A DNA stretch of 64,000 nucleotides from an archaeon (lineage in GTDB: Archaea; Thermoproteota; Nitrososphaeria; Nitrososphaerales; Nitrosopumilaceae). A program made the translations under genes and the position numbers. A model generated the notes under the pieces. That model was not told where the DNA came from. It worked only from the letters and a program-made list of their open reading frames with translations, and made no database searches. Location of the stretch: assembly GCA_024276695.1 (NCBI GenBank), contig JAJRWR010000017.1, forward strand, positions 1 through 64,000, given 5' to 3'. Position 1 is the stretch's first letter. Each line of letters begins with the position of its first letter. This document shows positions 6,055-54,267 of this stretch, piece by piece.

Positions 6055-6136
6055 GACTTGTTTTAATTAATCAGACATTTTTAGTTGTTGTAAGCTTCAG
6101 TTGATTTAAATTAATAACATACCGTTCCAAGCTGAA

Positions 6137-7132
6137 TTGATCATAATAGATGAAGCGAGAATTTTCAAAGAAATAGAAGAAAAGAAACCAGCATCAGTTT
6201 CATTAAATGGTCCAGATGGCATGTTGCCTCAGGTTCAAGATATGGCAATTAAAATTTCAAAAAAATACGAAATCCCAGCATATGTTTTAGCAGACACAAC
6301 ATGGGGAACTTGTGATTTGAATACAACTGGTTCAAAAATATTAGGAGCGGAAATTCAATTCAACATTGGACATACGATTAACACAGAGTCATTAGAGAAA
6401 AATTTAGTTTTAATTGATGCTTTTGATGATGTTAAGTTTGACAGTGTTGCAGAGAAATGCACAAATCTCTTAAAAGGAAAATTAATTTCTCTAGTTACAG
6501 ATAGTCAACATTTGCATCAAATGGATAAAGTTGAAAAAATTTTAACAAAAAACGGGATTAAAGTAAAAATTGGAAAGGGGAAAGGGCAACTAAATGATGG
6601 TCAAGTATTTGGATGTGAATTTTATCCCGCAACAGAATTAAAAAAAGAAGTAGACGCCTACGTATTTTTAGGACAAAGCAATTTTCATGCCGCAGGTATT
6701 GCATTATCAACAAATTTACCAACATTTGTTTTAGATCCTTATTTCAATGAAATAAGAGAAGTAACAGAATTTGCACGTACTCTAAAAAAGAAAGCATCTC
6801 TAGCAATATTTAAAGCAGCAGAAGCAAAATCATTTGGAATAATTATTGGATTAAAAGAAGGGCAATTATCCAAAGTATTTGGCTTAAAATTTAAAAAAGA
6901 ATTAGAAAAAGAAGGGAAAAAAGTTCAATTATTTGCACTTACAGATATTACAAATGAGAGATTAAACAATCTTAGAGGAATTGATGCATTTATTCAAGTT
7001 GCGTGCCCAAGAATTTCCACAGATAATCAATTTGACAAGCCGTTATTGTCTACACCGCAGGCTAATGCACTTCTAAAAGTTTTACGAAAAGAAAGCATTG
7101 ATGAATATTTAGAAATTCCACATTGGTTATAG
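6137..7132 (+). CDS. dph2: Diphthamide synthesis radical enzyme (2-(3-amino-3-carboxypropyl)histidine synthase)
   Basis: First step of diphthamide formation on elongation factor 2: transfers the 3-amino-3-carboxypropyl group of SAM to a histidine, using a [4Fe-4S] cluster. At 331 residues it fits archaeal Dph2. The three cluster cysteines fall in TTWGTCDLN, FGCEFYPA and VACPRIS, one per domain. The start is TTG at 6137 (the next codons read IIIDEAR). It is transcribed away from tiaS. Confidence 0.93.
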   Translation: MIIIDEARIFKEIEEKKPASVSLNGPDGMLPQVQDMAIKISKKYEIPAYVLADTTWGTCDLNTTGSKILGAEIQFNIGHTINTESLEKNLVLIDAFDDVKFDSVAEKCTNLLKGKLISLVTDSQHLHQMDKVEKILTKNGIKVKIGKGKGQLNDGQVFGCEFYPATELKKEVDAYVFLGQSNFHAAGIALSTNLPTFVLDPYFNEIREVTEFARTLKKKASLAIFKAAEAKSFGIIIGLKEGQLSKVFGLKFKKELEKEGKKVQLFALTDITNERLNNLRGIDAFIQVACPRISTDNQFDKPLLSTPQANALLKVLRKESIDEYLEIPHWL

Positions 7133-7741
7133 TTACAATACTAATTTTTTGAATCTAGGGTTATCTAACAATTTTTCAAATATTTTTGATTTTTTTGCTT
7201 TGATTTTATATTGTATTCCTTGAGAAATTGCACGCTCAAGAAGATCTAATGCTTCATCATATTTGGACAACATTGCAAAGTTGCAGGACTTGTCAAACAA
7301 AATATCTCCATTGTCAGGATAATCATTTAGGATTTGATTACAACACAAAATGGATTCATCAAAATTTTCCATAGAAAATAAAATTCGTTCTTTATGATAC
7401 AGGGCAATGTTGTACTTTGGATTGTTCTTTAAGATACTATTACAAATAGATAGCGCGTCATCAAAATTTCCCTGTTTACGAAAGGATGAGATTTTGTTAA
7501 CTAAAACAGATAGATCATCTGGAGAAATTTCTAGAGCAGCATCATAGCACTTCATGGCATTATCAAAGTCTTTTAGTTTGCTTAGAGCATATCCTTTATT
7601 GTTAAGTGAACTCAAATGTTGTGAGTTTTCATCTAGAATTTTATCATAATATGTAATTGCTTCTTGCAGTTTTCCTTGTAAAAATAATCTATTACCTTCA
7701 TCTAAAATTGAGTTTATTCTTGGATCTTCCACAGTAATCAA
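7133..7741 (-). CDS. TPR repeat protein
   Basis: A 202-residue protein built from about five tetratricopeptide repeats (for example GNRLFLQGKLQEAITYYDKI, NKGYALSKLKDFDNAMKCYD). A scaffold or adaptor role is likely; partners are unknown. Its ATG overlaps the upstream dehydrogenase stop by four bases (ATGA), so the two are co-translated. It ends right against dph2 (convergent). A second TPR protein of similar style lies at 56057-56758. Confidence 0.85.
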   Translation of the reverse strand: MITVEDPRINSILDEGNRLFLQGKLQEAITYYDKILDENSQHLSSLNNKGYALSKLKDFDNAMKCYDAALEISPDDLSVLVNKISSFRKQGNFDDALSICNSILKNNPKYNIALYHKERILFSMENFDESILCCNQILNDYPDNGDILFDKSCNFAMLSKYDEALDLLERAISQGIQYKIKAKKSKIFEKLLDNPRFKKLVL

Positions 7742-8823
7742 GATCCAGGTTTGATTAAGATTTTTCCAAACAATCCTTTGCCTTTGAGCATTTTTGTGTG
7801 AGCTATAGCAGCTTCTTCCAGAGAATATACTGAATCAATTATAGATTTTATTTTGCCTTGTGATATCCAATACATGCCTTGTTCTAATTCAGATCTAGTT
7901 CCCTGAGTTGAGCCTAAAATATTGATACCTTTAAAGAAAATATGGCGTAAATCAGTTTTGGCATCATATCCAGTAGTTGCACCAGTTGTAACTATTGTTC
8001 CACCATAATTTAGTAAAGTTAATTCTTTATTCCAGTGAGATCCACCAATATGTTCAAAAATTATATCCACTCCACTAACATCCCCCAAGGGTTTTGGAAT
8101 TTTTTTTGCAATTGAACGTACTTCTTTATGCCAATCTTCTTTTCTGTGATCTACTGCATAATCAGCTCCGAGTTCCAATAGCTTATCTAATTTATCAGGA
8201 CTTGCAGTAGCTATTACAGTGCAACCAAAAAGTTTTGCGATTTGAATTCCATAATTGCCAACTCCAGAACTGCCACCCATTATCAAAACAATTTGTCCAG
8301 GTTGGATTTTTGCTCGACCTACTAACATATGCCATGACGTCAACAAAGTCATTGATGCAGCAGCTGCTTCATCGTATGAAACACCTTCCGGAATTTTAAC
8401 GACATTAACTTCTGGAAGGTGTGTAAATTCACAGTAACCTCCCCATAGCGGACCTGTTTCAAAACCCCATATGGTTCGCTCTCTACAATCAAATTCCCTA
8501 CCATCAGTGCACGCTTTACAAACTCGACAAGACATGTTCCCATGTGATACAACTCTATCTCCAACTTTGATATTTTTAACATCACATCCAATTGCTGTTA
8601 CATCACCAGCAGCATCAGTGCCAGATATGTGAGGCAGTGGAATTGCCAATGGTTTGCCTCTCATCCCCCAAATATCGTCATAGTTTAGAGCGGCTGTTTT
8701 TACTTTGATTATAACTTCATTAGATTTTGGTTCAGGTATTGGAATTTCTTTAATTTTCAAGATTTTAGAAAAATCATCATCGTCAGTATATTGATCATAT
8801 ACTAGAGCTTTCATGATTTCCAT
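7738..8823 (-). CDS. MDR-family dehydrogenase/reductase, copy 1
   Basis: A 361-residue medium-chain dehydrogenase. The structural-zinc lobe is intact (CRVCKACTDGREFDC) and the Rossmann motif is GGSSGVGNYG. The catalytic-zinc ligands of alcohol dehydrogenases are absent: NYDDIWG replaces the CxxD-type motif and SGTDAAG replaces GHE. That pattern fits enoyl/acryloyl-CoA reductases or quinone reductases better than a zinc alcohol dehydrogenase. A close paralogue lies at 58942-60021. The true start may be the second ATG (MKALVYDQY). The substrate is inferred only. Confidence 0.8.
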   Translation of the reverse strand: MEIMKALVYDQYTDDDDFSKILKIKEIPIPEPKSNEVIIKVKTAALNYDDIWGMRGKPLAIPLPHISGTDAAGDVTAIGCDVKNIKVGDRVVSHGNMSCRVCKACTDGREFDCRERTIWGFETGPLWGGYCEFTHLPEVNVVKIPEGVSYDEAAAASMTLLTSWHMLVGRAKIQPGQIVLIMGGSSGVGNYGIQIAKLFGCTVIATASPDKLDKLLELGADYAVDHRKEDWHKEVRSIAKKIPKPLGDVSGVDIIFEHIGGSHWNKELTLLNYGGTIVTTGATTGYDAKTDLRHIFFKGINILGSTQGTRSELEQGMYWISQGKIKSIIDSVYSLEEAAIAHTKMLKGKGLFGKILIKPGS

Positions 8824-8901
8824 CTAATTTTTGAAGATATATGATTTATCAAGATCATTCAAACCACAAACAATTATAATCATAAAAGCAAAATTCTCAA
8901 T

Positions 8902-9453
8902 ATGTCTGAAAACGCAATATTTCCAGGTGACAAAATAGCATCTATTGAAGAATATGAGGCAGGAAATAATGCTTTTGACGATGGAGATATGGTAAGGGCA
9001 GCAACAGTTGGAGAAAAAGACATTGACAAGACATCACGAATCGTCAACGTAAAGCATCCAAAACTTCTATCAATTCCAAAAGTGGCAGATATCATTATTG
9101 GAACAGTTGTTGCAGTAATGTCATCCATGATTGCAGTTTCAATTGATTACATCAATGGAAAACCAACAACATCTAAAGTAGAATGTGTTTGTGGAACAAG
9201 GAATTTGAGGATAAGAAATGTTGCACTAGTTAATGACATTGTTACATTAAAAATTCTAAATCACCTTAATGGTACTATTCATGCATCAATTAGTGAACCA
9301 AGTTTAGGAATTTTATTTACCAAATGTAGAAAATGTGGAGGAAAAGTTGTTCCAATGCGCGATGCAATAAAATGCACAGATTGTGCATGGATTGATGAGA
9401 GAAAACTTTCTTCAAACTTTGGAAATAGTGATTTCGTAAATTTAAGAGGATAA
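8902..9453 (+). CDS. csl4: Exosome RNA-binding subunit Csl4
   Basis: Cap subunit of the archaeal RNA exosome, which recruits RNA and DnaG to the Rrp41/42 ring. The 183 residues show an N-terminal domain (FPGDKIASIEEYEAGNNAFD), a central S1 domain (VADIIIGTVVAV) and a C-terminal zinc ribbon (CRKCGGKVV...CTDCAW). It is divergent from the dehydrogenase at 7738-8823 and four codon-sized bases upstream of pheA, a likely two-gene transcript. Confidence 0.93.
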   Translation: MSENAIFPGDKIASIEEYEAGNNAFDDGDMVRAATVGEKDIDKTSRIVNVKHPKLLSIPKVADIIIGTVVAVMSSMIAVSIDYINGKPTTSKVECVCGTRNLRIRNVALVNDIVTLKILNHLNGTIHASISEPSLGILFTKCRKCGGKVVPMRDAIKCTDCAWIDERKLSSNFGNSDFVNLRG

Positions 9454-9456
9454 TAG

Positions 9457-10272
9457 ATGATACGTGTTTCGTTCCAAGGTGAACGAGGGGCTTATAGTGA
9501 AGCTGCAGCAAGATCATTTTTCAATGAACAGATCGAAACGATCCCTCTGACAACATTTGCCGAAGTATTAGAAAACACTACCAATGAAAAAACACAATAT
9601 GCTGTTTTGCCAGTAGAAAATTCTCTAGAAGGAAGTGTTGGTGAAAGTTATGATTTGTTATATTCAACATCTCTAAATGCAACAGGCGAAATTTATCATA
9701 GAATCGAACATTGTTTAATTGGAACTGGCAATATTGATCAAATTGATACAGTCTATTCACATCCACAAGCTTTAGGCCAATGCAGAAAGTTCATTGAAGA
9801 GCATAACATGAAAACAATTCCTGCATATGATACAGCAGGAAGTGTAAAAATAGTCAAAGAGATAAACAAAGAAAATTGTGCATGTATTGCCAGCAAAGAG
9901 GCAGCAAAAAGATATGAAGTGCCAATCATCTTAGACAATATTGCAAATAATCTGAACAACTATACCAGATTTTTGATTCTATCAAAAACAGACAATTCTG
10001 AGACAGGTAATGACAAAACATCAATAATATTTTCAATAAAACACGAACCAGGCTCGTTATTTAGAATAATTGAGAATTTCCACAGAAACAATGTAAACCT
10101 AACAAAGATAGAATCAAGACCAACAAAAGCAAATACTTGGGAATATAATTTCTATGTAGATTTTGAAGGACATCAAAATAACCCTAAAATTTCTGAAATG
10201 TTAAAAAGAATAAAACAAGAAACTCTGTTTATGAAAGTTTTAGGATCCTATCCTTCAGCGAAATTGAGCTAA
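9457..10272 (+). CDS. pheA: Prephenate dehydratase
   Basis: Converts prephenate to phenylpyruvate in phenylalanine synthesis. It is a monofunctional 271-residue form with no chorismate mutase. It has the PDT domain (GERGAYSEAAA, VENSLEGSVGESYDLL, catalytic NNYTRFLIL) followed by an ACT domain with the phenylalanine-binding ESRP motif, so feedback control is expected. It ends convergently over the stop of the membrane protein at 10269-10739. Confidence 0.94.
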   Translation: MIRVSFQGERGAYSEAAARSFFNEQIETIPLTTFAEVLENTTNEKTQYAVLPVENSLEGSVGESYDLLYSTSLNATGEIYHRIEHCLIGTGNIDQIDTVYSHPQALGQCRKFIEEHNMKTIPAYDTAGSVKIVKEINKENCACIASKEAAKRYEVPIILDNIANNLNNYTRFLILSKTDNSETGNDKTSIIFSIKHEPGSLFRIIENFHRNNVNLTKIESRPTKANTWEYNFYVDFEGHQNNPKISEMLKRIKQETLFMKVLGSYPSAKLS

Positions 10273-10739
10273 AATCCTTTAGGTTTTCTCAGAGTAAAGC
10301 CCATACTAAATCCAATGATTACAACTCCTGATGTAATTACCATAAGATCAAAAGTAAATCCAATTGGATTAGGAGTTTGTTTGGTTATTGCTGTAATTTC
10401 TAAATCAGAGCTTCCTGTATTTTGAATTTGAATTTTTGTTTCACCGTCTTTTAGATGAACCCAGTCTAAAGTTAATTCTTTTTTGTACGAAGTGTTTGGA
10501 ATTTGTAATCCATCTCCAGGACTTTGAAGTTTGAGATCAAAGGCATCGCCAATAATGGTCAAAGATTGAGGTGCATGATTAGGTGCAGGAATTCTTAAAG
10601 TGGTTGAATCACCTTCGACTATAGTAAAAATTTCAGTTACATCTACGGTAGGTCCCAAATTAGAAAATAAAGAATAACCCCCAAGTGCAAGAATTACACT
10701 TCCAACTACCAATCCAATAATAGTTCGTTTAGAAAGCAT
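10269..10739 (-). CDS. Small membrane protein with extracytoplasmic beta domain
   Basis: 156 residues with a hydrophobic segment at ~8-27, a polar middle rich in beta-type residues, and a second hydrophobic segment at ~130-148, then RKPKGF. This would place the central domain outside the cell, anchored at both ends. I do not recognise the family. The stop overlaps the pheA end by four bases on opposite strands. Confidence 0.65.
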   Translation of the reverse strand: MLSKRTIIGLVVGSVILALGGYSLFSNLGPTVDVTEIFTIVEGDSTTLRIPAPNHAPQSLTIIGDAFDLKLQSPGDGLQIPNTSYKKELTLDWVHLKDGETKIQIQNTGSSDLEITAITKQTPNPIGFTFDLMVITSGVVIIGFSMGFTLRKPKGF

Positions 10740-10741
10740 AA

Positions 10742-11533
10742 TTGAATAATTCTAGATACTGTTTAAAAAATTATCTACAATGTGGATCTAATCTCTATTA
10801 CTCTGCATTCCATCTAGCATCGTCTTTCATATTTTTGGCAAATGAATCTCAGTTAAAATTAGATGATTATTTGTTGAGCCCAAATACGTCTGAAAATACC
10901 AAAAAAAGAAGAATTTTAGATATTTCACATACAGAACTTCCAAAATATCTCCTAAAGGTATCAGGACATGATGATTTTAAGAAAAATCTTTCAGAAAGTC
11001 TAGAAATCTTAATGGAATTACGTGAACTTCATTCGTATGGGCCTTATCTGCAATTACTAAAGGATTATGATGAAAGTGAAAAAAATATTGGATTTTCTTA
11101 CAAATTTGTTTTACAAAAAGAACACTTCAATCTAAAAGATAAACAAAGAACTGATGACAAACCACTATTTACTGAAACATATCGAATTTGTGAAATACAA
11201 TATAAAAAAATTGAACAGTTAATCAGCAATTATTATGATATTTTTGTGGAGAGAAAACCTAGATTTGAAAAATATCAATCAGGGCTTTTAGCTTATGTAA
11301 TACCTCCGTTAATTCCTAATGTTTTATCTCCATTATCAGATAAATCAATTCTAAAAGAAGTAGAAAAGAAAATGGAAGTCTTATCTGAAATGTTAGGAAA
11401 AGATGAAAAGAAAATGTACAATCAAGGTAAAAAACGAAATGCTGAACCACAGAGAAAATCTCTTGAGAAAGGTGAGGTTCTAACAGAAATTAGATTAGGA
11501 TTATCTAAAAAATATACAATTAGATCTGACTAA
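10742..11533 (+). CDS. Hypothetical protein, possible HEPN-like fold
   Basis: A 263-residue soluble protein. The first possible start is TTG at 10742; no ATG occurs in the first ~90 codons, so the start is uncertain. It is largely helical with charged C-terminal coils. The segments LYYSAFHLASSFIFLA and LRELHSYGPY recall HEPN domains (the YxxAxxxA helix and an Arg-His pair), but this is weak. It is followed by another HEPN-like ORF 50 bases downstream. Function unknown. Confidence 0.55.
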   Translation: MNNSRYCLKNYLQCGSNLYYSAFHLASSFIFLANESQLKLDDYLLSPNTSENTKKRRILDISHTELPKYLLKVSGHDDFKKNLSESLEILMELRELHSYGPYLQLLKDYDESEKNIGFSYKFVLQKEHFNLKDKQRTDDKPLFTETYRICEIQYKKIEQLISNYYDIFVERKPRFEKYQSGLLAYVIPPLIPNVLSPLSDKSILKEVEKKMEVLSEMLGKDEKKMYNQGKKRNAEPQRKSLEKGEVLTEIRLGLSKKYTIRSD

Positions 11534-11583
11534 AATCATTAATCATGGAGAATACAGAATAAGGGAAGGAATAATCACAATGT

Positions 11584-12243
11584 ATGTCCACATTTTTACA
11601 AGTATACCAACAAGCTCAATTAGATTTCCAGCAACTTTGCTCTAAAATAAGAGATCTAAACTTGAAAGCAAATTATCCAGCAACTGACAAAAGACATGGG
11701 GCACTTCAATCACTAATGAAAATTTGTATGTGGAAATTGATGGACATTAAGAGTTTTCAAAACTATGGAATTGAACATACTTCAATTCTAATAACTACTT
11801 TTAATCTAAATAGACATGATGCGCTTCAATTTGCCAATTCCACTGATATTCTATTACGAGTATCTTTTCTTACATTGTTCATGTTTCAAACAGAAAATTT
11901 GCTAAGAATGATTCTGGATAATCTAGATGTGAATGGAACTAGTAACAAATACTATAATATTTGTAAAGATGTTTTACAGGTTACTCATCCCAATAATTTA
12001 CAAGAAAAACACGATATTTTACAGGTCACAGCATATTTGCGTAACTGCCTTCACAATAGTGGGGCTCATACAAATCAATCAAAATCATTTACAATTGGGA
12101 ATGTAACTTATGATTTTGTACAAAATCAGATGTTTTCTCATGCTGCATGGTCAGATATTATTATCATGGTTAATGAATTAGTGGATGTTGTTGATGAAAT
12201 TATTTCTGATTCAAATGTAAAAGCATTAAGCATACTAAGATAA
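11584..12243 (+). CDS. Hypothetical HEPN-like protein
   Basis: 219 residues, soluble and mainly helical. Near residue 150 it has YLRNCLHNSGAH, which resembles the RN..H.(N)G catalytic signature of RiboL-PSP/HEPN ribonuclease-type domains, though the Arg-His spacing is three residues and not the common four to six. No obvious antitoxin neighbour is present; the 263-residue ORF upstream is the only candidate partner. Function not assigned. Confidence 0.6.
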   Translation: MSTFLQVYQQAQLDFQQLCSKIRDLNLKANYPATDKRHGALQSLMKICMWKLMDIKSFQNYGIEHTSILITTFNLNRHDALQFANSTDILLRVSFLTLFMFQTENLLRMILDNLDVNGTSNKYYNICKDVLQVTHPNNLQEKHDILQVTAYLRNCLHNSGAHTNQSKSFTIGNVTYDFVQNQMFSHAAWSDIIIMVNELVDVVDEIISDSNVKALSILR

Positions 12244-12306
12244 TATTGCAATTTCAATTAACCGACTCTTACAAAATAGTATAATTGAATTTGAAAGTTT
12301 AAGTAT

Positions 12307-13737
12307 CTACATCAAAGAAACATCATGAGGCTGACTTTCTGCAAATCCAGCTCTTGACATTTTGATAAATTCTGCATTTTCTTGCATTTGTGGAATTGTG
12401 TGGGCTCCACAATAACTCAGACCAGAACGTACTCCACCTGTTAATTGTTTTAAAATATCAGTAACAGTTCCTTTGTAAGGAACCATTGCCTCCACTCCTT
12501 CTGCAACATAATCATTAAGATCATCATCAAGGGATATCGAGCCTGTTTCTTTTGATTTTCTACCAATTGATGCAGCTAGTGATGCCATTCCCCTATACAC
12601 TTTGAATCGTTTTCCATTTTTAGTCAGAACGGTACCAGGAGACTCGTCAGTTCCTCCAAGCATACTGCCCACCATTACTGAAGAAGCACCAGAAGCTAAT
12701 GCTTTAGTGGCATCACCGGATGTCCGGGTTCCGCCATCAGAAATTATAGGAATTCCATGATCATTGCCAATTTTTGCACAGTCCATTACTGCAGTTAACT
12801 GAGGTACACCAGAGCCAGTAATTACCCTAGTAATACAAATCGAACCAGAACCTACACCGACTTTAACAGCATCAACCCCAGCTTTAATCAAATCTTCGGC
12901 TCCTTGAGCAGTTGCGATATTTCCTGCAATTAATTCACAGTTTGGAAATGCTTTTTTGATATTTCTGATTGTACTCATTGCATTTTCACTATGTCCATGA
13001 GCAATGTCAACTACAAGAACATCAGCACCTGCTTCTAAAAGAGATTCGCTTCTTTCTAAAAAGTCACCTTTCACTCCAACTGCTGCACCAACTAATGGTC
13101 TACCTTTCTTATCTTTAGATGCATTTGGAAAATCAGCATTATTTGTAATATCCTTGCTTGTAATCAGACCTTTGACAATTCCAGAATCATCAACTATTGG
13201 TAGTTTTTCAATTCTATGTTTATGTAAGATTTCTTTAGATTCATTTAATGTAACACCTAATTTCGCTGTTACAACATCTTTAGTCATTACATCTTGGATT
13301 TTATTGTCTCTATTTGCAAACAGTAAATCTCGCTCAGTTACAATTCCTATTAATTTAGAATTAGAATCAACAACTAATAATCCAGAGATTTCTTTGTCTT
13401 CTGCATAATCAAGTGCTTCTTCAATAGATTTGTCTGGAGATATAGAATATGGGTTTTCAATCATTACACTGCCTGATCGTTTGACTTTGAGAACCTCATT
13501 TGCTTGTTCTCTGATTGTCAAAAATCTATGAATAATTCCTATGCCTCCTGCACGAGCCATAGCTCCTGCCATAGAAGATTCAGTTACAGTATCCATATTT
13601 GCACTCACAAAAGGAATGTTAATTGATAAATTTCGAGATAATTTGGTAGTTAAGTCTGTCTGACTTCTACTAGTAATATCTGAATATTTGGGTACGAGAA
13701 GAACGTCATCAAAAGTTAATCCTTCTTTGAATTCCAA
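12307..13737 (-). CDS. guaB: Inosine-5'-monophosphate dehydrogenase
   Basis: Oxidises IMP to XMP with NAD, committing purines to GMP. The 476-residue protein has the TIM barrel ([15 protein letters not shown] at the start), two CBS domains inserted at about residues 95-205 ([17 protein letters not shown]...VMTKDVVTA), the phosphate-binding and catalytic-cysteine loop [13 protein letters not shown], and the mobile flap region. guaA, the next enzyme, is in this window at 16015 on the other strand. Confidence 0.97.
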
Positions 13738-44816: not shown

Positions 44817-45374
44817 TTAACTACCTTGCTGAGATACATCTTTTGTAAGATTTTCAGCTAATTGTTCATAATGTTCTCTAGTTTTTCCAAGTTCAGTTAG
44901 TCTAGATTTTTCAATTTCGGAAAGTTCTTTGTCAACTTTTTCGGAAACATATTGTAATCTTGCCTCTGCCATCATGAATAATTTATTATTCTCTTTCCAC
45001 AAATGTTCAGTGATATGTTCTGTATACTCTTGCATATCGCTAATTAGTTTAGTTGAATCTCCTGATGAAAGATATTCTCTTGCAGATTCTTCCATTTGAG
45101 CACCTATTTCTCTTGAACGTTGATGATCAATTAACATCATGGCAATCGGTCCCATATTGGTAGGTAATCCAGCTTGTTCTAATGCAGGAAACAAAGATTT
45201 TTCTTCTTTACTATGATGACAAACATCTGTAAAGTTTTTTGAAAAATCAATTACAGGTAATAGAATAGATTCAGGAATTTGTTTATCATCATTTAATAAT
45301 TGGATAGTGGATTCCATTGATTTGATAACTTTTTCAATTAATTCATGATCGCGTCTTAATGATGCAGTTGACAT
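44817..45374 (-). CDS. Hemerythrin HHE-domain protein
   Basis: 185 residues. Four-helix HHE cation-binding domain: RRDHELIEKVIKSME, DVCHHSKEEKSLFPALE, LIDHQRSRE and EHITEHLWKENNKLF give the His and Glu ligands of a diiron site. Likely oxygen/redox sensing or iron handling. A C-terminal helix extends 40 residues past the domain. It is divergent from the CRISPR-cas island. Confidence 0.85.
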   Translation of the reverse strand: MSTASLRRDHELIEKVIKSMESTIQLLNDDKQIPESILLPVIDFSKNFTDVCHHSKEEKSLFPALEQAGLPTNMGPIAMMLIDHQRSREIGAQMEESAREYLSSGDSTKLISDMQEYTEHITEHLWKENNKLFMMAEARLQYVSEKVDKELSEIEKSRLTELGKTREHYEQLAENLTKDVSQQGS

Positions 45375-45430
45375 GATTATTTTGAATTAAATCCAATATC
45401 TATACTTTATTCATTTTAAAATCTGGTTAA

Positions 45431-45470
45431 CTGTCAGATGTGAAAACATCCAATGAGTCATTTCTGACAG
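45431..45470. repeat. 8-bp inverted repeat at the left edge of the cas island
   Basis: CTGTCAGA at 45431-45438 and TCTGACAG at 45463-45470 form a perfect inverted repeat with 24 bases between. It lies in the gap between hemerythrin and cas3. TGTCAGATG here (45432-45440) is the reverse complement of CATCTGACA at 51276-51284 beyond the array. It may be a boundary of an inserted island or a cas-operon operator. Confidence 0.4.
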
Positions 45471-45493
45471 AAAGACGCCAAAAATTTCTTGGT

Positions 45494-45600
45494 ATGACCT
45501 TCTTTTTGGAGGGTTCTTAGTTGGCAAGAACATACATCAGAATTAGAAGAAAGCGTGCAACAGAAGAGCAGATAACTGACGAAATTTTCTCAACATATCC
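45494..45600 (+). pseudogene. Displaced N-terminal coding remnant of cas3
   Basis: Fragments MTFFLEGS (frame of ATG 45494), VLSWQEHTSELEESVQQKSR (next frame, ends TAA at 45573-45575) and LTKFSQHIL (same frame after TAA) read, in order, like the HD-domain first helices of Cas3. They require about two single-base corrections, at a G run near 45509-45513 and GG at 45603-45604, plus removal of the stop. The fragments are real in the sequence; their joining is inference. Confidence 0.5.
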
Positions 45601-47652
45601 TTGGCTTTTTATTCTGGATTGTTACATGATATTGGAAAAATAAATCCAGTTTATCAGGAGATATTTTATGAAACAAAAAACAGAAAACAAGTAGAAGAAA
45701 AAATACTAGAAAAATACGTCAAAGAACATTCAAGATTTTCTGCTTGGACTGTAGATAAGCTATTGGAAAAAAGAGGTCTTGATCATAGTACAATTGACAA
45801 AATAACTGTATTAATTTATGGACATCATTCCACAATTAGAGGAAACCTTGGAAGTGTAGAAGGGAATAAATTTACAGCGACCAAAGATACAATTTCCCAA
45901 GTATTACCTGAATTTAGATCACAAGCATCAAATTGTTCTAAATTCTCAGAACTTAATTGGGATTCATGTTTGGAGGAATTTCAATACCCTGTAGATTTTC
46001 AGGTCAACCTTTCAGAGTTCAAAAATTCACTTGATGATTATTTGGAGATATCCTGTGCATTTTCATGCCTACTTCAGGCAGATAGAGGCAGTTTTGACAA
46101 GTGGTATATACCTAATTTTGATTTGAAATTACAGACCCAGTCTCTAATTTCAGACAGTCCTCTTGGAAAAATCCGTACAGATTTTCAAAAACAGGTAATG
46201 GATAACTTTGATGAAGCCCAGGGAATTTCAATAATTAATGCACCTACAGGAATTGGAAAGACCAAGGTATTTTTGGATATCATTAATCAATATTCAGAAA
46301 ACAAAGATGTTGAGCGAATATTTTACTTTTCCCCATTACTTGCATTAACTGAAGACTTTGAATCAAAGATAGCATCCGTAATATCAAAAAACCAGCAAGA
46401 AGATATTTTGATTTACAACCATCTGTATTCCGGTTCCTTACAAGATAAGAGAGAAGAAGGAGAAACTAGAATCTCTAATCAATGGATATTTGAAAATGAA
46501 TCATTTAACAAAAAATTTGTCATAACTACTACTCAGAGATTACTCATGACAATTTACTCTAACAAATCTCGAGACAAAATGAAGATGGCATCATTTAGAA
46601 ACTCAGTATTAATTATTGATGAAGTTCAAACAATTCCAAAATCAATACTATCCAATCTGAAAGATATTTTCAAAAAAATGAATCAATACATGAGAACCAA
46701 ATTCATTTTAGTTAGTGCGACAATTCCTCATGAGATAAGTGACATTAAACGAGTTGAATTATCTTTAGAAACTTTGAAAGATTATTTATCTCAGACAAAA
46801 AAGCAAATCTCACTTCAACCCCTAGATGTAAAGACCATTCCAATTAAAAAAACACTAGTAATGGCAAACACCAGAAAAAAGGCAGTACAACTATATTCTG
46901 AAATTAAGCAAGAATATCAAGACAAAAAAATAATCTACATCTCTACTGGAATTAGAAAAAAAGACAGAATACGTATAATCCAAGACCTGCCTAAAATATA
47001 TGAGTATGTCCTTGTTGCAACTCAGGTAGTCGAAGCAGGTGTAGACATTGATTTCTCACATGTGTTTAGAGAGCAGACACCACTTGATAATCTCATTCAA
47101 GTGATGGGCAGATTAAACAGAGAGGGGAAAAACCCTGAGGCAAAATTAGTTATTTATCCTACAGACGGTAATCCAATTCCTTATAGTCCATTAGAATTTC
47201 AAGTGACTCAGGAAAAAATTTTAGGCATCACTAATTCTATGCAAATATATGATATTTTAGATCAATATTATTCTGAGATTTCTGAACGAAATACGAGTAA
47301 TTCTGAGGCTGCAGAGAAACTAGAACGACTAATTGCAAGAATGGATTTTGATGGGGTATGGGAATTTGTCAGAAATAAGGTATTTCAGGAAGATAGTCGT
47401 GATACCGTGTTTATTCCAGATATTGAGTACTGGGATGAGGTAAAAAATGGATTACTATGTGGAGTGACTCGTGAAAGTTTCAAAGAATTTGGAAATTTGA
47501 CAGCATCACTTCCAATTTCACTAGATAAAGTTGGGGCAGAATTTTTTGATGAAGAATTAATAGAGAAAAATATTCTGTTACCAAAAAAAGAACACCTCGA
47601 AATAATTTATGATAAAGATATGGGATTAGACAAATGGATAACAAAAGAATAA
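45601..47652 (+). CDS. cas3: CRISPR helicase-nuclease Cas3, 5' end apparently broken
   Basis: 683 residues from a TTG. HD nuclease residues: GLLHDIGKINPVYQ, KEHSRFSAW, IYGHHS. Helicase: Walker A NAPTGIGKTK, Walker B IIDEVQ, VSATIP, and VLVATQVVEAGVDIDFSH with QVMGRLNREG. The HD domain's usual first His is absent from this frame. It can be read upstream as WQEHTSELEES in another frame (45522-45572), followed by TAA and then LTKFSQHIL. The true gene probably began near ATG 45494 and has suffered a stop and frameshifts, or the sequence has errors. Overlaps cas6 by 19 bases. Confidence 0.88.
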   Translation: MAFYSGLLHDIGKINPVYQEIFYETKNRKQVEEKILEKYVKEHSRFSAWTVDKLLEKRGLDHSTIDKITVLIYGHHSTIRGNLGSVEGNKFTATKDTISQVLPEFRSQASNCSKFSELNWDSCLEEFQYPVDFQVNLSEFKNSLDDYLEISCAFSCLLQADRGSFDKWYIPNFDLKLQTQSLISDSPLGKIRTDFQKQVMDNFDEAQGISIINAPTGIGKTKVFLDIINQYSENKDVERIFYFSPLLALTEDFESKIASVISKNQQEDILIYNHLYSGSLQDKREEGETRISNQWIFENESFNKKFVITTTQRLLMTIYSNKSRDKMKMASFRNSVLIIDEVQTIPKSILSNLKDIFKKMNQYMRTKFILVSATIPHEISDIKRVELSLETLKDYLSQTKKQISLQPLDVKTIPIKKTLVMANTRKKAVQLYSEIKQEYQDKKIIYISTGIRKKDRIRIIQDLPKIYEYVLVATQVVEAGVDIDFSHVFREQTPLDNLIQVMGRLNREGKNPEAKLVIYPTDGNPIPYSPLEFQVTQEKILGITNSMQIYDILDQYYSEISERNTSNSEAAEKLERLIARMDFDGVWEFVRNKVFQEDSRDTVFIPDIEYWDEVKNGLLCGVTRESFKEFGNLTASLPISLDKVGAEFFDEELIEKNILLPKKEHLEIIYDKDMGLDKWITKE

Positions 47653-48287
47653 AAATATGCTATGCAGTACTGGATTTTGATTCAGATTACAAGGTAACAC
47701 CTGTCAAATTAAGAGGTTTTTTAGCACATCTTTTTGCAAATATTTCTGAATTTCACCATCATTCAGATAGTGCATATCACTATCCACTGATACAGTACAA
47801 AAGAATTGAAAAGAAACTAGCAGTAGTTGGAATAAAAGAATTTGCAGATATTATTTTTCAGAACATGTCTAGATTAGATCACATAACTACTGAAACAGAA
47901 AAGATTCCATTAAACAATATCGAGATTAAAAGTAGTTCATTTGAAGTAGAACAAGTTCCACAAAAATACAAATTCATATCACCTTGGCTTGCATTAAATG
48001 AAAAAAATTATGCAAAGTTTAAGGAATTGACAAATAATGAAAAGAGACCATTCTTAGAAAAAATACTTGTTGGAAATATCTTATCTTTATTGAAAGGATT
48101 GGACATATTTGTGGATCATAAAATTATTGTATCCATTACAAAGTTTAACAGTGTTAGAATCACTGCTCATCAAAACAGTTTTGCAGGAATTTATGCAGAG
48201 TTTGAATGCAATACATTACTACCTGAATATCTTGGTCTTGGTAAAAGTGTCACAAAAGGATTGGGAGTAATAAAGAAAATATCATGA
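47634..48287 (+). CDS. cas6: CRISPR RNA endoribonuclease Cas6 (Cas6b-like)
   Basis: 217 residues. The segments KLRGFLAHLFA, FHHHSDSAYHYPLIQYKRI, FISPWLALNEKNYAKF and the glycine-rich C-terminal loop LGLGKSVTKGLGVIKK match the Cas6b-type RAMP family. It is expected to cut the repeat just before AUUGAAAC, leaving an 8-base 5' handle. The histidine cluster at residues ~41-50 may hold catalytic residues. The first ATG overlaps cas3 by 19 bases and the stop overlaps cas1 by four. Confidence 0.85.
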   Translation: MDNKRIKICYAVLDFDSDYKVTPVKLRGFLAHLFANISEFHHHSDSAYHYPLIQYKRIEKKLAVVGIKEFADIIFQNMSRLDHITTETEKIPLNNIEIKSSSFEVEQVPQKYKFISPWLALNEKNYAKFKELTNNEKRPFLEKILVGNILSLLKGLDIFVDHKIIVSITKFNSVRITAHQNSFAGIYAEFECNTLLPEYLGLGKSVTKGLGVIKKIS

Positions 48288-49240
48288 TAATCGAGGTAAG
48301 CACTCATGGCAGCACCATAAAAAGAGATCATGATTCTTTCGTAATTCAGTCAAAGGATGAAAAAACTGAGATTCCAGCAGAAAAAGTTGATGCGGTAATA
48401 ATTACAGCAAACTCCTTGATCAGTACACATGCAGTACGATTATGCGTTGAAAAGCAGATACAGATGGTAATTTCAACATGGTCAGGAAAACCTGTTGCCA
48501 GATTATGGTCAAGTACTCCTGGAAAATCAACACAGCTAAGACGTAATCAGTATTTGAATCAAGACACCGTTATGGGATTTGAAATATCTGTAATGATCTT
48601 AGAGAAAAAACTACTAGAACAAAGAACATTTTTAAATAATTTAAAAAATAATCGAAATTCACCTCCGACAAAAATAGAGCGAGTAATTCCCACCATTACT
48701 AATTCTATTAAGAAAGTCCAAGATCTCAAGTATTCAAATGACTACAAATCCACTCTCTTGGGATTGGAAGGTGCATGTGCTGCAGGCTATTTCCAGGCAA
48801 TTTCATCGATTTTACCACAAAAATGGTCTACTGATAAACGAAGTCAGCACCCAGCACATGACAGTTTTAATGCCGTTTTAAACTATTTGTATGGAATGGC
48901 ATATGCCGATGTTGAGAAAATAATCATACTTTCAGGCCTTGATCCAAATGCGGGATTTTACCATGCTGATTCTTATGGAAAACCTACATTATCTTATGAT
49001 GTGATTGAGCTAGTACGACCAGTTGTAGATAGAATTGCAGTGACGTCATTTACCAAAAAAAGGGTTCATGATGATTGGTTTAAAATACAAGATAATGGTA
49101 TTGATGGCGTCTTTCTCTCAAAAACTGCAAGACAGTTTTTCATCTCATTATATGTTGAAAATGGACGTAAAATTATAGAGTCAAGATCATGGGATTTTTG
49201 CAAAAACATTATAAAAAAACTGCAAGGTAATGCCACATGA
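48284..49240 (+). CDS. cas1: CRISPR adaptation integrase Cas1
   Basis: 318 residues. Catalytic Glu in GLEGACAAGYFQAI, His in GFYHADSYGKPTLSYDVIEL, and the acidic residue in the same helix (VIELVRPVVDR) are all present, so the enzyme looks active. Beta-rich N-terminal domain, helical C-terminal domain. Coupled by ATGA overlaps to cas6 and cas2. Confidence 0.96.
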   Translation: MIIEVSTHGSTIKRDHDSFVIQSKDEKTEIPAEKVDAVIITANSLISTHAVRLCVEKQIQMVISTWSGKPVARLWSSTPGKSTQLRRNQYLNQDTVMGFEISVMILEKKLLEQRTFLNNLKNNRNSPPTKIERVIPTITNSIKKVQDLKYSNDYKSTLLGLEGACAAGYFQAISSILPQKWSTDKRSQHPAHDSFNAVLNYLYGMAYADVEKIIILSGLDPNAGFYHADSYGKPTLSYDVIELVRPVVDRIAVTSFTKKRVHDDWFKIQDNGIDGVFLSKTARQFFISLYVENGRKIIESRSWDFCKNIIKKLQGNAT

Positions 49241-49530
49241 AAAATATGTATTATGCAGTTTATGATATCAGTGATGATTCTACTCGCAGTTCAGTAATTC
49301 ACATTCTTAAAAATCAGGGATTTTCAAGGATTCAAAAAAGTGTTTTTTGTGGAAGTTTATCCGGGCAAAACAAAAAGGATTTGATTGAATCAATAAAGAT
49401 GATAGTAGATGAGAATGACTCTTTTTATTTAATATTGACTTGTAATCAATGCTTTGGCAAGATCAAAATAATCGGTAAAGGGTTTGATGAGGAATACGTT
49501 TCTGACAAGAAACCTGCAGTTGTATTATGA
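49237..49530 (+). CDS. cas2: CRISPR adaptation protein Cas2
   Basis: 97 residues, ferredoxin-like: YYAVYDISDDSTRSSVIHIL contains the conserved Asp, then FSRIQKSVFCGSL. It bridges two Cas1 dimers during spacer integration. ATGA overlaps on both sides. Confidence 0.95.
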   Translation: MKNMYYAVYDISDDSTRSSVIHILKNQGFSRIQKSVFCGSLSGQNKKDLIESIKMIVDENDSFYLILTCNQCFGKIKIIGKGFDEEYVSDKKPAVVL

Positions 49531-50120
49531 CTTTTCCACTTACCGTTACAGATGTAGTAGAATACGCATTTTGTCCAAAATTTACGTATTTTATCAATGT
49601 TCTAGGGTTAGGACAGTTTGAGCAAAAAAGAGGATCTGTTTCTGCTGGACGCAAACTACACAACAAACATGAAAGAAGTAATTTGGATTATGTTCCACAA
49701 GGATTCAAAGGGAAGAAAATTATTGCATGCAAATTCTTTTCAGAAAAATATGAATTGTCAGGCAAGATTGATGAGGCAATAGACATGGAAAACGAAATAA
49801 TACTAATTGAACGAAAGTACAGTGACAATCACAAAGTATATCCTGCACTCAGAATACAGTTGGGATTACTTTCTGTACTAATTGAAGAAAACATGCACAA
49901 GCCTGTAAGAAAAGCAATTGTAATTTTTAATAAAACACAAAGAAAAGCAATTCATGTCATTATCGATGATTCAATAAGAAATGAATCGCTAGAAATGTTA
50001 AATGATGTAAAAAAAATAATTAAAAGTGAAATTATGCCTGAATCTGAATTTGACAATAGATGTCTAAATTGTTGTTTTAGAAGAATTTGTCCTACGGGTT
50101 CTTTAAATAGTGACGAATAA
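49527..50120 (+). CDS. cas4: CRISPR adaptation nuclease Cas4
   Basis: 197 residues, RecB-like exonuclease with iron-sulfur cluster. Cluster Cys in EYAFCPKFTYF and CLNCCFRRICPTGS; nuclease residues in LSGKIDEAI, ILIERKYS and the later Gln (RIQLGLL). Expected to trim prespacers and select PAM. Last cas gene; the array starts 80 bases downstream. Confidence 0.94.
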   Translation: MTFPLTVTDVVEYAFCPKFTYFINVLGLGQFEQKRGSVSAGRKLHNKHERSNLDYVPQGFKGKKIIACKFFSEKYELSGKIDEAIDMENEIILIERKYSDNHKVYPALRIQLGLLSVLIEENMHKPVRKAIVIFNKTQRKAIHVIIDDSIRNESLEMLNDVKKIIKSEIMPESEFDNRCLNCCFRRICPTGSLNSDE

Positions 50121-50200
50121 TTTGTTGAAACCAAGAAATATGTTGATTAGATATGGTGAAAATTAATAAAATAGGCACAGATTCGGACATAATAGTTGCT
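50121..50200 (+). promoter_or_regulatory. CRISPR leader
   Basis: 80 bases between cas4 and the first repeat. AT-rich, with no ORF. The degenerate repeat is at the far right, so the leader is on this side and transcription is left to right. It includes TTGAAACCAAG-like sequence close to the cas4 stop. Short for a leader; cas-operon read-through is likely. Confidence 0.6.
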
Positions 50201-50816
50201 GTCAAAATGACAAATCCATCATAACAAGGATTGAAACACTATGAAGAAGACATACACAACATACTAGAACACCCGTCAAAATGACAAATCCATCATAACA
50301 AGGATTGAAACCGGAATTAATGAGGATAGGAAAAGTGGCTCCCTAGGTCAAAATGACAAATCCATCATAACAAGGATTGAAACTGTACCCTTGGACCAAT
50401 AAGTGCAGTTGTGAAGGAAGGTCAAAATGACAAATCCATCATAACAAGGATTGAAACCTCCATGTATTGCATACAGTCCATACCCTGATCTGAGTCAAAA
50501 TGACAAATCCATCATAACAAGGATTGAAACTTAAATGTTTAGTTAGCAGGACGTATCAAGGAAAGTCAAAATGACAAATCCATCATAACAAGGATTGAAA
50601 CGGGGTTTTGCTGGCGGTAACTCACCTAGAGATATTGTCAAAATGACAAATCCATCATAACAAGGATTGAAACCAAACGTAGTAACCATGTCTATTCATT
50701 TTTCTCCTGGGTCAAAATGACAAATCCATCATAACAAGGATTGAAACTCGTTGTATGAGTGTGCCAGTTCTTCCATGATATCAAGTCAAAATGACAAATC
50801 CATCATAACAAGGATT
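50201..50816 (+). CRISPR. CRISPR array, eight full repeats plus one degenerate terminal repeat
   Basis: 37-base repeats, starting GTCAAAATGACAAAT and ending GGATTGAAAC, at 50201, 50275, 50347, 50421, 50494, 50565, 50637 and 50711, all identical. A ninth at 50785 matches for 32 bases (to GGATT) and then diverges. Eight spacers of 37, 35, 37, 36, 34, 35, 37 and 37 bases. Within the repeat AATCC and GGATT can form a 5-bp hairpin, and the 3' ATTGAAAC is the typical crRNA handle. No spacer visibly matches other parts of the window. Confidence 0.98.
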
Positions 50817-51396
50817 AAAGTCGAGACTTGATAAAGTTAGCAAAAATCAATTCGGTAATACTACTGTATACATATCCCAGTTGTTTTTTGTGTAGCATAT
50901 AGAATCAAAGATGTATCATGTAATGTAGATGTTCAACTTATTATTTGTCAATTCATTTGTTAGAAGAAAACAAATGATCATTTAGTGAATATCAAGTGTA
51001 AAATAACTCATATTCTCTACACTAGTTTAACAGATATCTTTAGTATAGTAAATGCGGGCATTACAAAAATGGTCTATCAGGCATAACTGATTTTCTGTTA
51101 AACATTGTGTCAGGCATTACAGAATTACGTGTAGAAAATGTAGAGATTTGTAGTGCCTACATTTTCCAATATTTGTGAATTTTTTACATATATGTATTTT
51201 GTATATTGTTAACAAAATATGGAGATTGTTGTGCTTAACAAGTAAAATTGTTAATGTATGGATGTAGAAAATGGTCATCTGACACTTGACCTGACACAAT
51301 CTGTCAGGTGTTAGGTACAAAAGTAACCGAAATACTTATTTTAAAAAATAATTAAAAGATAGAAATGAGTTAACGATGATTCGTTAACATGTGGGT
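50817..51396. other. Noncoding region downstream of the array
   Basis: About 580 bases with no supported gene. AT-rich, with inverted repeats: ATTGTGTCAGG (51104-51114) against CCTGACACAAT (51290-51300); a hairpin GAAAATGTAG/CTACATTTTC (51134-51143, 51157-51166); and ACCTGACA/TGTCAGGT (51289-51296, 51302-51309). No transposase. It could be a mobile-element remnant, a structured RNA or an island boundary. Confidence 0.55.
51104..51300. repeat. 11-bp inverted-repeat-bounded segment
   Basis: A perfect 11-bp terminal-type inverted repeat encloses 197 bases, including an internal 10-bp stem with a 13-base loop. The layout resembles a MITE-like element, but no flanking target duplication is evident, and a structured RNA is equally possible. 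Confidence 0.4.
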
Positions 51397-51651
51397 TTAA
51401 CGATTAGAAAGGCTGTTTGATTTTACAAATGTCCAAATCTTTTTGGTCATTTCACTTGGTGCAATTGGTTTCTTACCAAATACTTGTTCTACAGTTTCAG
51501 AACGTCCTGCAAAACTGATTGCATATCCACCAAATGCTGATTTTTTAGCTTTTGATTTAGTTGCTTTCTTTTTTGATGCTGTTTTTCTTTTTGTTGTAGC
51601 CTTTTTTGTTGTAGCTTTTCTTTTGGTTGTGGTTTTCTTTTTTACTGCCAA
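51397..51651 (-). CDS. Lysine-rich SWIB-like chromatin protein
   Basis: 84 residues. About 38 Lys/Thr/Ala-rich N-terminal residues resembling a histone tail, then a short domain ending IAPSEMTKKIWTFVKSNSLSNR, which resembles part of a SWIB/MDM2 domain. Probably DNA-associated. Small proteins of this design are common in ammonia-oxidising archaea. Confidence 0.7.
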   Translation of the reverse strand: MAVKKKTTTKRKATTKKATTKRKTASKKKATKSKAKKSAFGGYAISFAGRSETVEQVFGKKPIAPSEMTKKIWTFVKSNSLSNR

Positions 51652-52344: not shown

Positions 52345-53521
52345 GTATTATTTTCCCTCCAATCATTACAGCTTTAATTGTAGATTCAGATGCTCTATGG
52401 ACAATAGATGCATGTGGATTGTGCATCGGTTCTAAATCTAATGCATGTTTATCTAAAAAAATACAATCAGCTAAGTTTCCAGATTTGATTATTCCAATAT
52501 TTTTATTTAAAATTTTTCCACCATTTACAGTAGCCATCTTAAGAATCTCTTTAGGTTCAATTCTTTTTTTGTGTATCCCCATAGTCACTTTCCAAATAAA
52601 ATCCATCTCTCTAAACATATCTGGTGAGTTAATCATCACATTATCTGTGCCTAATCCTATTGTACAGTTGGATTTTTGCATTAATTCAATGTCAGGAATT
52701 CCTTCCGCAAGTGATGAATTAGCTCTTGGACAAATTACAATACCCCTAGTTTTTTTAGATACTAAATGAAGATCAGATTTTGACGCATACGTCATATGAA
52801 CTAAAAAATCAGGTTTTAGCGTTAAAGCCCTAATAGTTTCTGATTTTCCAGTAATTTTTTTTGATTTGGTAATACTTTGTTTAGTTTCGGATGAATGGAT
52901 TGCTCTAATCTTTGATATTTTAGAATAGTAATTCAACACAGAATTACTATTTTCATTTGCACCACTGATACCTATGCCGTCACATTTTTTGAGTAATGAT
53001 AAGAATTCAGAGGATTTTGTGCTAGGAAACGATAAATTTTTTTTGATTTCTTTAGTATCTTGATAAAATTCCATACGCCCTAAAATTATGGAACGTATAG
53101 GAATATCAGATAGAACCTTTTTTAGTAAAATCACTCCCTCTAATCCACCTTCTCTAAAATCAACAAAAGTTGTAATCCCTTTTCTAATCATAGAATAACA
53201 TGTATTTTTCATAAAATTTCCCAAATGCTCATTTGATGTGTTTTTAAGAATTTTTGATTTAGCGCCAAATACAGGATGGATCTTTTGATCAACTGTTTTG
53301 TCTAAAGAAATGTCTTTTCCAATCGAGTCTCCGATATGCGTATGTGCATTAATAAATCCAGGAATCATCAATAGTCCTTCACAGTCTACAGATTCTTCTT
53401 TTACATTTGATTTAATTTTTGATTGAATCTTTTTAAATTTATCATTTTTAATTTGTATATCAGTATTTGGAATAAAATCCAAATCTTGTCCAGATAATAT
53501 GCTGATGTTTTTAATTAACAT
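52331..53521 (-). CDS. Amidohydrolase of the riboflavin operon, putative aminohydrolase
   Basis: 396 residues, ATZ/TRZ-type (guanine/SAH/cytosine deaminase-like) fold. Metal ligands and catalytic residues visible: INAHTHIGDS, RAIHSSET, HMTYAS, CPRANSSLAEG and GLGTDNVMINSPDMF. It overlaps arfA by seven bases and arfC by 14, so it is made with them. Candidate for the unassigned riboflavin deaminase in archaea, or for the formamide hydrolase step; not a proven function. Confidence 0.85.
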   Translation of the reverse strand: MLIKNISILSGQDLDFIPNTDIQIKNDKFKKIQSKIKSNVKEESVDCEGLLMIPGFINAHTHIGDSIGKDISLDKTVDQKIHPVFGAKSKILKNTSNEHLGNFMKNTCYSMIRKGITTFVDFREGGLEGVILLKKVLSDIPIRSIILGRMEFYQDTKEIKKNLSFPSTKSSEFLSLLKKCDGIGISGANENSNSVLNYYSKISKIRAIHSSETKQSITKSKKITGKSETIRALTLKPDFLVHMTYASKSDLHLVSKKTRGIVICPRANSSLAEGIPDIELMQKSNCTIGLGTDNVMINSPDMFREMDFIWKVTMGIHKKRIEPKEILKMATVNGGKILNKNIGIIKSGNLADCIFLDKHALDLEPMHNPHASIVHRASESTIKAVMIGGKIIHGKI

Positions 53522-54267
53522 GATAATTCATAAACTTCAGGTTTTTCTTTGCCTGAATCTCGAATTTTCCTTATAGTATCAAGGGATTTTGTGGCTAATT
53601 TTACTGCCTCTCTACCTGTATTTGCATTACCTATTCCACAATTCAAAGAAATTTTATCGTTATTTTTTACCATATTGATAAAATCTTGTACAGATTTTTT
53701 TGCTTCATCATTTGATACTACCATAAAATTATCACCTCCCATAAAAAATGTGAGAGAATTTTTTTCTAAAAAGAATTTAGACATTTTTGAATATAACTCA
53801 AAGATTACTGATGAAATTTCATAGGGGGAATCAGTTTTCCTTCTGGAAGTAAGGTCATCTACATCTAAGTGCATTATAGAAACTTTAGAATTAGATTTAC
53901 CATTAATGAAACCAAAAATATTATGTTCTGTGTTTAAAATAATTTTATTTTTCTTTCCTTCATATGCTTTCAAGTTTGCATCAAATGGAGTATTTCCAAT
54001 ACCAATAGATATTGTTAATCTAATGTCAAATAATTTTTCAAGTGTTTCTTGGATTTGAATATGATCTTCCAAGTCTAAACCATTTGAAACCACAAAAAAT
54101 TCATCAGATCTATTAAGAAAAACTATACAATTCTTTTCAGAAAATAATTTTTGTACTTCTTTGTAGAGTGAAGCTTGAAGCATTTGGAGTTCATGTTCTC
54201 TATCGCTTCCTAAAGTCAAGGTCCAAGGACCATATTCTGTAATTTTTAAGATACTTAGTTGAATCAT
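53515..54267 (-). CDS. arfA: GTP cyclohydrolase III
   Basis: 250 residues, archaeal GTP cyclohydrolase IIa (ArfA) type, GGDEF-like fold with two related halves (LTISIGIGNTPFDANLKA, FMGGDNFMVVSNDE, SLNCGIGNANTGREAVKLA). Converts GTP to the formylamino-pyrimidine nucleotide that starts archaeal riboflavin synthesis. Overlaps ribH by four bases. Confidence 0.92.
   Translation of the reverse strand: MIQLSILKITEYGPWTLTLGSDREHELQMLQASLYKEVQKLFSEKNCIVFLNRSDEFFVVSNGLDLEDHIQIQETLEKLFDIRLTISIGIGNTPFDANLKAYEGKKNKIILNTEHNIFGFINGKSNSKVSIMHLDVDDLTSRRKTDSPYEISSVIFELYSKMSKFFLEKNSLTFFMGGDNFMVVSNDEAKKSVQDFINMVKNNDKISLNCGIGNANTGREAVKLATKSLDTIRKIRDSGKEKPEVYELSC

What the first reader, a model, noticed from the sequence alone, without database searches (positions are those of the whole stretch)
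45494..50816. CRISPR-Cas island with adaptation, Cas6 and Cas3 but no interference complex
The operon runs cas3-cas6-cas1-cas2-cas4-array with overlaps throughout, and contains no cas5, cas7, cas8, csm/cmr or single-protein effector. Flanking genes (hemerythrin, SWIB-like protein) are unrelated. A helicase-nuclease needs Cascade to be loaded, so either the effector genes lie elsewhere, the locus is a remnant, or Cas3 works in an unconventional way with adaptation-only immunity. The array is homogeneous, suggesting it was built recently.
Basis: partly seen in the sequence, partly recalled or inferred. Interest (0 to 1): 0.85.

Follow-up and report, generated by a model that had tools for sequence, protein, structure and literature searches.

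The report
Decayed mobile CRISPR island missing effector
In a Nitrosopumilus-type archaeon, a mobile DNA island carrying an ordinary type I-B CRISPR immune system lost its target-cutting half in one deletion, leaving the spacer-capture genes, a beheaded Cas3 and a short array, so it is most likely a broken leftover rather than a new kind of immunity.

Summary
In detail: cas3-cas6-cas1-cas2-cas4-array with no cas5, cas7 or cas8. The explanation is ordinary. All five genes are type I-B. Two congeners (G070, and Nitrosopumilus PfA with a frameshifted cas8b) have the full cas8b-cas7-cas5-cas3-cas6-cas1-cas2-cas4-array operon. The window has its last five genes, and its Cas3 lacks the first ~46 residues, including an invariant HD-domain histidine. 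Upstream of that truncation lies not cas sequence but the 5' region and first ~24 codons of a tyrosine-recombinase (integrase) gene, joined at a short TTTTCT microhomology. Relatives up to 93% identical have an empty site; the 5.9-kb island is flanked by the 9-bp repeat ATTTTAAAA. So an integrase-borne I-B element inserted between the hemerythrin and SWIB-like genes, and a deletion then removed most of the integrase, cas8b-cas7-cas5 and the cas3 start. Genome searches (41 contigs, 99.5% complete) with models that find these genes in four relatives found none here, and no type III effector, second array or rest of the integrase. The remaining ORFs are intact, so spacer capture and crRNA processing remain possible, but interference is not expected. 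Thaumarchaeal integrated elements with type I-B CRISPR-Cas are already published; this is a decayed relative.

The parts
45413..45421 (.). left copy of a 9-bp direct repeat (ATTTTAAAA) at the island edge; the flank matches the empty site up to here
   Evidence: blastn to L100 5164-5172; exact repeat with 51338-51346
45422..45585 (+). 5' untranslated region and first ~24 codons (TTG at 45521) of a 406-aa HTH plus tyrosine-recombinase (integrase) gene; remnant
   Evidence: 81% DNA identity to G079 and ~70% to G036/G032 copies; tblastn 58% over 24 aa; relatives carry HALRH...Y motifs and weak Phage_integrase hits
45578..45586 (.). deletion junction between the integrase gene and cas3, with TTTTCT shared by both sides (microhomology)
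   Evidence: comparison with L096 (GAAATTTTCTCA) and L039 cas3 (GTTTTCTAACA)
45601..47652 (+). cas3 (type I-B helicase-nuclease), 5'-truncated: first ~46 residues with an invariant HD His lost, helicase motifs intact
   Evidence: PADLOC Cas3b 2.4e-80 from profile position 36; TIGR01596 HD from position 33; alignment A1
47634..48287 (+). cas6b, crRNA-processing endoribonuclease
   Evidence: Pfam Cas6b_N and Cas6b_C
48284..49240 (+). cas1, spacer integrase
   Evidence: TIGR00287 6.1e-65; PADLOC Cas1b 1.1e-73
49237..49530 (+). cas2
   Evidence: TIGR01573 2.9e-13
49527..50120 (+). cas4, prespacer-processing nuclease
   Evidence: TIGR00372 8.8e-27; PADLOC Cas4b 4.6e-37
50121..50200 (+). leader; its end TTGCT next to the first repeat is shared with Nitrosopumilus PfA
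   Evidence: sequence comparison
50201..50821 (+). CRISPR array: 9 repeats (GTCAAAATGACAAATCCATCATAACAAGGATTGAAAC), 8 spacers; last repeat degenerate
   Evidence: (Rfam CRISPR-DR7)
50822..51337 (.). non-coding right part of the island, up to the insertion boundary
   Evidence: absent from relatives G033 and G007
51338..51346 (.). right copy of the 9-bp direct repeat ATTTTAAAA

Best explanation
This is a deletion remnant of a mobile type I-B CRISPR-Cas island. Step 1 (shown by empty sites): a ~5.9-kb-or-larger element inserted between the hemerythrin-like and SWIB-like genes, leaving a 9-bp direct repeat. Step 2 (inferred from homology): a tyrosine recombinase at its left end did the insertion. 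Step 3 (shown by comparison with intact operons): a deletion joined codon ~24 of that integrase to codon ~46 of cas3, through a short TTTTCT match. It removed the rest of the integrase, cas8b, cas7, cas5 and the cas3 start. Step 4 (inferred): interference is dead because there is no Cascade and the Cas3 nuclease domain is damaged. Cas6, Cas1, Cas2, Cas4, the leader and the array are intact, so crRNA processing and naive spacer acquisition may still occur without protective effect. The deletion is recent enough that no further frame has been lost.
For: Family assignment is I-B throughout. The full operon cas8b-cas7-cas5-cas3-cas6-cas1-cas2-cas4-array is present in G070, and in G085/Nitrosopumilus PfA with a frameshift in cas8b. 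Cas3 N-terminal truncation is seen against four homologues. Integrase 5' sequence is joined directly to cas3. The empty site in G033 and G007 and the 9-bp repeat define the island. No cas8b, cas7 or cas5 was found in the own genome by models that hit all four relatives. There is no RAMP or true Cas10, only one array, and the rest of the integrase is absent. Only 5 of 95 genomes of the genus carry Cas6b, this one included; in the other four cas3 is full length with cas8b-cas7-cas5 upstream. [quoted passage not shown]
Against: The element's integrase is only a 24-codon stub. No intact element with this integrase next to these cas genes was seen, so integrase and CRISPR could have come together by more than one event. 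The genome is a 41-contig assembly, and reads were not available to test the junction. Repeats are uniform and all five ORFs are open, which would also fit continued use. The direct repeat is AT-rich and short.
Confidence: 0.87

Rival explanations
1. Assembly or binning artefact: the real strain has cas8b-cas7-cas5 and an intact cas3, and the contig wrongly joins an integrase fragment to cas3.
For: Draft genome in 41 contigs. Integrase fragments recur in the genus, so a chimaera is conceivable.
Against: The shared sequence at the junction is only about 6 bp, too short for a usual k-mer misjoin. No effector genes are on any other contig at 99.5% estimated completeness. No second integrase copy is present in the genome to cause the misjoin. 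The junction is in the middle of a 94.7-kb contig.
Confidence: 0.07
2. A working adaptation-plus-memory module: Cas1-Cas2-Cas4 and Cas6 are kept by selection for spacer acquisition or crRNA production used by something other than Cascade.
For: All remaining ORFs are open, the helicase motifs of Cas3 are kept, the leader end and repeats are intact, and the operon is directly downstream of the integrase's 5' region, which may drive it.
Against: Only one genome shows this form. No alternative effector (RAMP, Cas10) is present. The array is the smallest seen: 9 repeats against at least 26, 27 and 43 in relatives. There is a slight excess of amino-acid changes on this branch (125 against 93, p = 0.036), which leans to relaxation.
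Confidence: 0.05
3. Effector genes lie elsewhere and act in trans with this array.
For: Common in principle; the genome is not closed.
Against: Own-genome searches with Cas8b, Cas7b and Cas5b models, RAMP and Cas10 found none, with positive controls working. Only one array has this repeat.
Confidence: 0.01

Closest known systems
Type I-B CRISPR-Cas of Nitrosopumilus sp. PfA (JAEFCZ010000084.1; L039) and G070
   Same: Same gene order cas3-cas6-cas1-cas2-cas4-array. PfA is 65-76% identical over cas3, cas6, cas1 and cas4, with a repeat differing at 2 of 37 positions and the same leader end; G070 is 42-48% identical with a different repeat.
   Different: These have cas8b-cas7-cas5 upstream, a full cas3 and larger arrays (PfA cas8b is frameshifted in the assembly).
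[quoted passage not shown] PMC6563490)
   Same: A type I-B locus carried as cargo of an integrated element in ammonia-oxidizing archaea.
   Different: Those are described with complete cas gene suites; this one is a small remnant without an intact integrase or effector. Sequences of those elements were not compared here.
Provirus-encoded incomplete type I-B systems of Haloferax lucentense (PMC12596717)
   Same: An incomplete I-B locus on an integrated element.
   Different: There the adaptation genes are missing; here the adaptation genes are kept and the effector is missing.

Membership tests
Type I-B CRISPR-Cas | I-B type Cas3, Cas6b, Cas1, Cas2 and Cas4 proteins | tested here: met
   Cas3b, Cas6b, Cas1b, Cas2b and Cas4b are the best or near-best PADLOC matches; Pfam Cas6b_N and Cas6b_C
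Type I-B CRISPR-Cas | Cascade genes cas8b, cas7, cas5 | tested here: not met
   Absent from the window and genome with positive controls. So it is not a functional type I-B system but a derived remnant of one.
Type I-B CRISPR-Cas | Intact Cas3 HD nuclease plus helicase | tested here: not met
   First ~46 residues missing, including an invariant His; helicase motifs kept
Type I-B CRISPR-Cas | Adjacent CRISPR array with leader | tested here: met
   9 repeats, Rfam CRISPR-DR7; leader end TTGCT conserved
Integrated mobile element (tyrosine-recombinase type) of Thaumarchaeota | Inserted segment absent from close relatives, with direct repeats at both ends | tested here: met
   G033 and G007 empty sites; ATTTTAAAA at both edges
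Integrated mobile element (tyrosine-recombinase type) of Thaumarchaeota | Integrase gene | tested here: inconclusive
   Only the 5' region and ~24 codons remain; the rest is absent from the genome
Type III CRISPR-Cas | Cas10 and Csm/Cmr RAMP proteins | tested here: not met
   No RAMP match. The Cas10 palm model hits only GTP cyclohydrolase III at 53515-54267, below cut-off
Casposon or other solo-Cas1 element | Cas1 casposase with a family B polymerase and no CRISPR array | tested here: not met
   Cas1 lies in a cas operon with cas2, cas4 and an array; no polymerase ORF in the island

The most novel reading that the evidence does not exclude
A module of Cas1-Cas2-Cas4, Cas6 and a nuclease-crippled Cas3 has been kept after losing Cascade because spacer capture or processed crRNA alone still serves the cell or the element, for example as a stored memory used when a Cascade-bearing element arrives.
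Probability: 0.05. Interest if true: 0.75.

Novelty: new member of a known kind. Interest (0 to 1): 0.27.

Why it matters
It shows, at base-pair resolution, how a mobile I-B island in marine ammonia-oxidizing archaea can lose its interference half while keeping the adaptation half, through a deletion between the element's integrase and cas3. With the IS-flanked inversion in G009 and the frameshifted cas8b in PfA, it suggests that this rare system (5 of 95 congeners) is repeatedly broken on the effector side. It would matter more only if the leftover module were shown to be active.

Tried and rejected
Spacers: no match in phage records, no exact match of 22-26-nt cores in viral contigs, and only weak 16-29-nt matches in 95 congeneric genomes (best E 0.03), so no targets and no self-target outside the array. 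Cas10 in the own genome: the only match is GTP cyclohydrolase III, a palm-domain relative, so rejected. A frameshifted Cas3 N-terminus in the upstream frame: rejected, because those codons match an integrase, not Cas3. Selection test by dN/dS: synonymous sites are near saturation (dS 1.0-1.8 against PfA), so uninformative; the relative-rate count is only marginal. Matching the island's right end to integrase elements' right ends: no convincing match. Structure prediction was not used: sequence alignment already settles the truncation.

Full report
What is there. The window lies in a 1.56-Mb, 41-contig archaeal genome, in the same genus as Nitrosopumilus sp. PfA. Between a hemerythrin-like gene (44817-45374, minus) and a SWIB-like gene (51397-51651, minus) stand cas3, cas6, cas1, cas2 and cas4, with overlaps of 19, 4, 4 and 4 bp, and an array of nine 37-nt repeats with eight spacers. 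HMM libraries place all five proteins in subtype I-B. No cas5, cas7, cas8 or single-protein effector is present in the island.

The ancestral operon. G070 has the complete order cas8b-cas7-cas5-cas3-cas6-cas1-cas2-cas4-array, and so does Nitrosopumilus PfA (L039, identical to a G085 contig), with cas8b split by a frameshift. The window holds exactly the last five genes plus the array. The PfA repeat differs from the window's at 2 of 37 positions, and the leader ends in the same TTGCT.

The break point. Aligned with four homologues, the window Cas3 starts at column 47: the segment with the invariant LSH and (D/E)HL residues is gone, while LLHD-GK and all invariant helicase residues remain. The Cas3 HD model is entered at position 33 of 178. 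That the first HD-domain histidine is a metal ligand in Cas3 nucleases is established knowledge from solved Cas3 proteins, recalled, not tested here. The open frame reaches only seven codons further upstream.

What replaced the missing part. DNA from about 45404-45414 to 45585-45592 is 70-81% identical to the 5' region and start of a gene present in G079, G036, G032 and G102. The full-length product (406 aa, G036 and G032) has an N-terminal helix-turn-helix, weak Phage_integrase matches at its C-terminus, and the HALRH...Y pattern of tyrosine recombinases. Only its first ~24 codons remain in the window, and the rest is nowhere in the genome. The integrase and cas3 sequences meet at TTTTCT, present on both sides, which suggests a microhomology deletion.

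The insertion site. In G033 (93% identical) and G007 (83-87%) the two flanking genes are neighbours. Window 45421 corresponds to G033 position 5172 and window 51338 to position 5164, so ATTTTAAAA occurs once in the empty site and at both edges of the island. The island is therefore about 5.9 kb (45422-51337).

Are the effectors elsewhere? Models of Cas8b, Cas7b and Cas5b built from the relatives hit all four positive-control genomes (best E per genome from 1e-129 to 1e-276) and gave nothing at E up to 10 in this genome. RAMP proteins: none. The Cas10 palm model hits only GTP cyclohydrolase III. There is no second array with this repeat. Estimated completeness is 99.5%.

How it works now. Best reading: interference is dead (no Cascade, damaged Cas3). 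Cas6, Cas1, Cas2, Cas4, leader and repeats are intact, so crRNA processing and naive acquisition are possible in principle (inferred). The array is the smallest seen: 9 repeats against at least 26, 27 and 43. The window branch shows slightly more amino-acid changes than PfA over cas3, cas6, cas1 and cas4 (125 against 93, p = 0.036), with no gene significant alone; this is weak evidence of relaxation. No spacer target was found.

Comparison with the literature. Thaumarchaeal integrated elements carrying complete type I-B systems, and others carrying only arrays, are described in PMC6563490. An incomplete I-B system on a haloarchaeal provirus, lacking adaptation genes, is in PMC12596717. The present locus is a decayed member of that known kind. 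A specific report of this locus was not found in the five literature searches made.

Limits. Reads were not available, so the junction rests on one assembly. An intact element with this integrase beside these cas genes was not seen, so the link between integrase and CRISPR cargo is by position only.

Noticed in passing
L047 (G009:C1:1734000-1752000), 5168-13596: In G009 the block cas8b-cas7-cas5-cas3-cas6 is inverted relative to cas1-cas2-cas4-array and bounded by two IS4/5-type transposase copies in inverted orientation (90-99% identical), pointing to an IS-mediated inversion that splits interference from adaptation.
   Followed up: partly
L039, 1501-1544: cas8b of Nitrosopumilus PfA is split into 462-aa and 141-aa frames: either an assembly error or a real loss of the effector.
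   Followed up: partly
L048 (G026:C67), 187-638: Downstream of cas6 in G026 lies an IS66-type transposase piece and the contig ends, so the adaptation genes are not visible there.
   Followed up: partly
L102 (G108) 2778-2864; L103 (G003) 2940-3032; L096 (G079) 3497-3787: Solo remnants of the same integrase 5' region recur at other loci in the genus, some without any integrase ORF, suggesting frequent decay of elements of this integrase family.
   Followed up: partly
window 51397-51651 and L100 5222-5569: The SWIB-like protein next to the insertion site has a Lys/Arg/Ala-rich repeat tail whose length differs between close relatives (84, 91 and 115 aa).
   Followed up: no
window 53515-54267: GTP cyclohydrolase III matches the Pfam 'minimal CRISPR polymerase' (mCpol) and, weakly, the Cas10 palm models, a trap for automated type III CRISPR detection.
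   Followed up: yes
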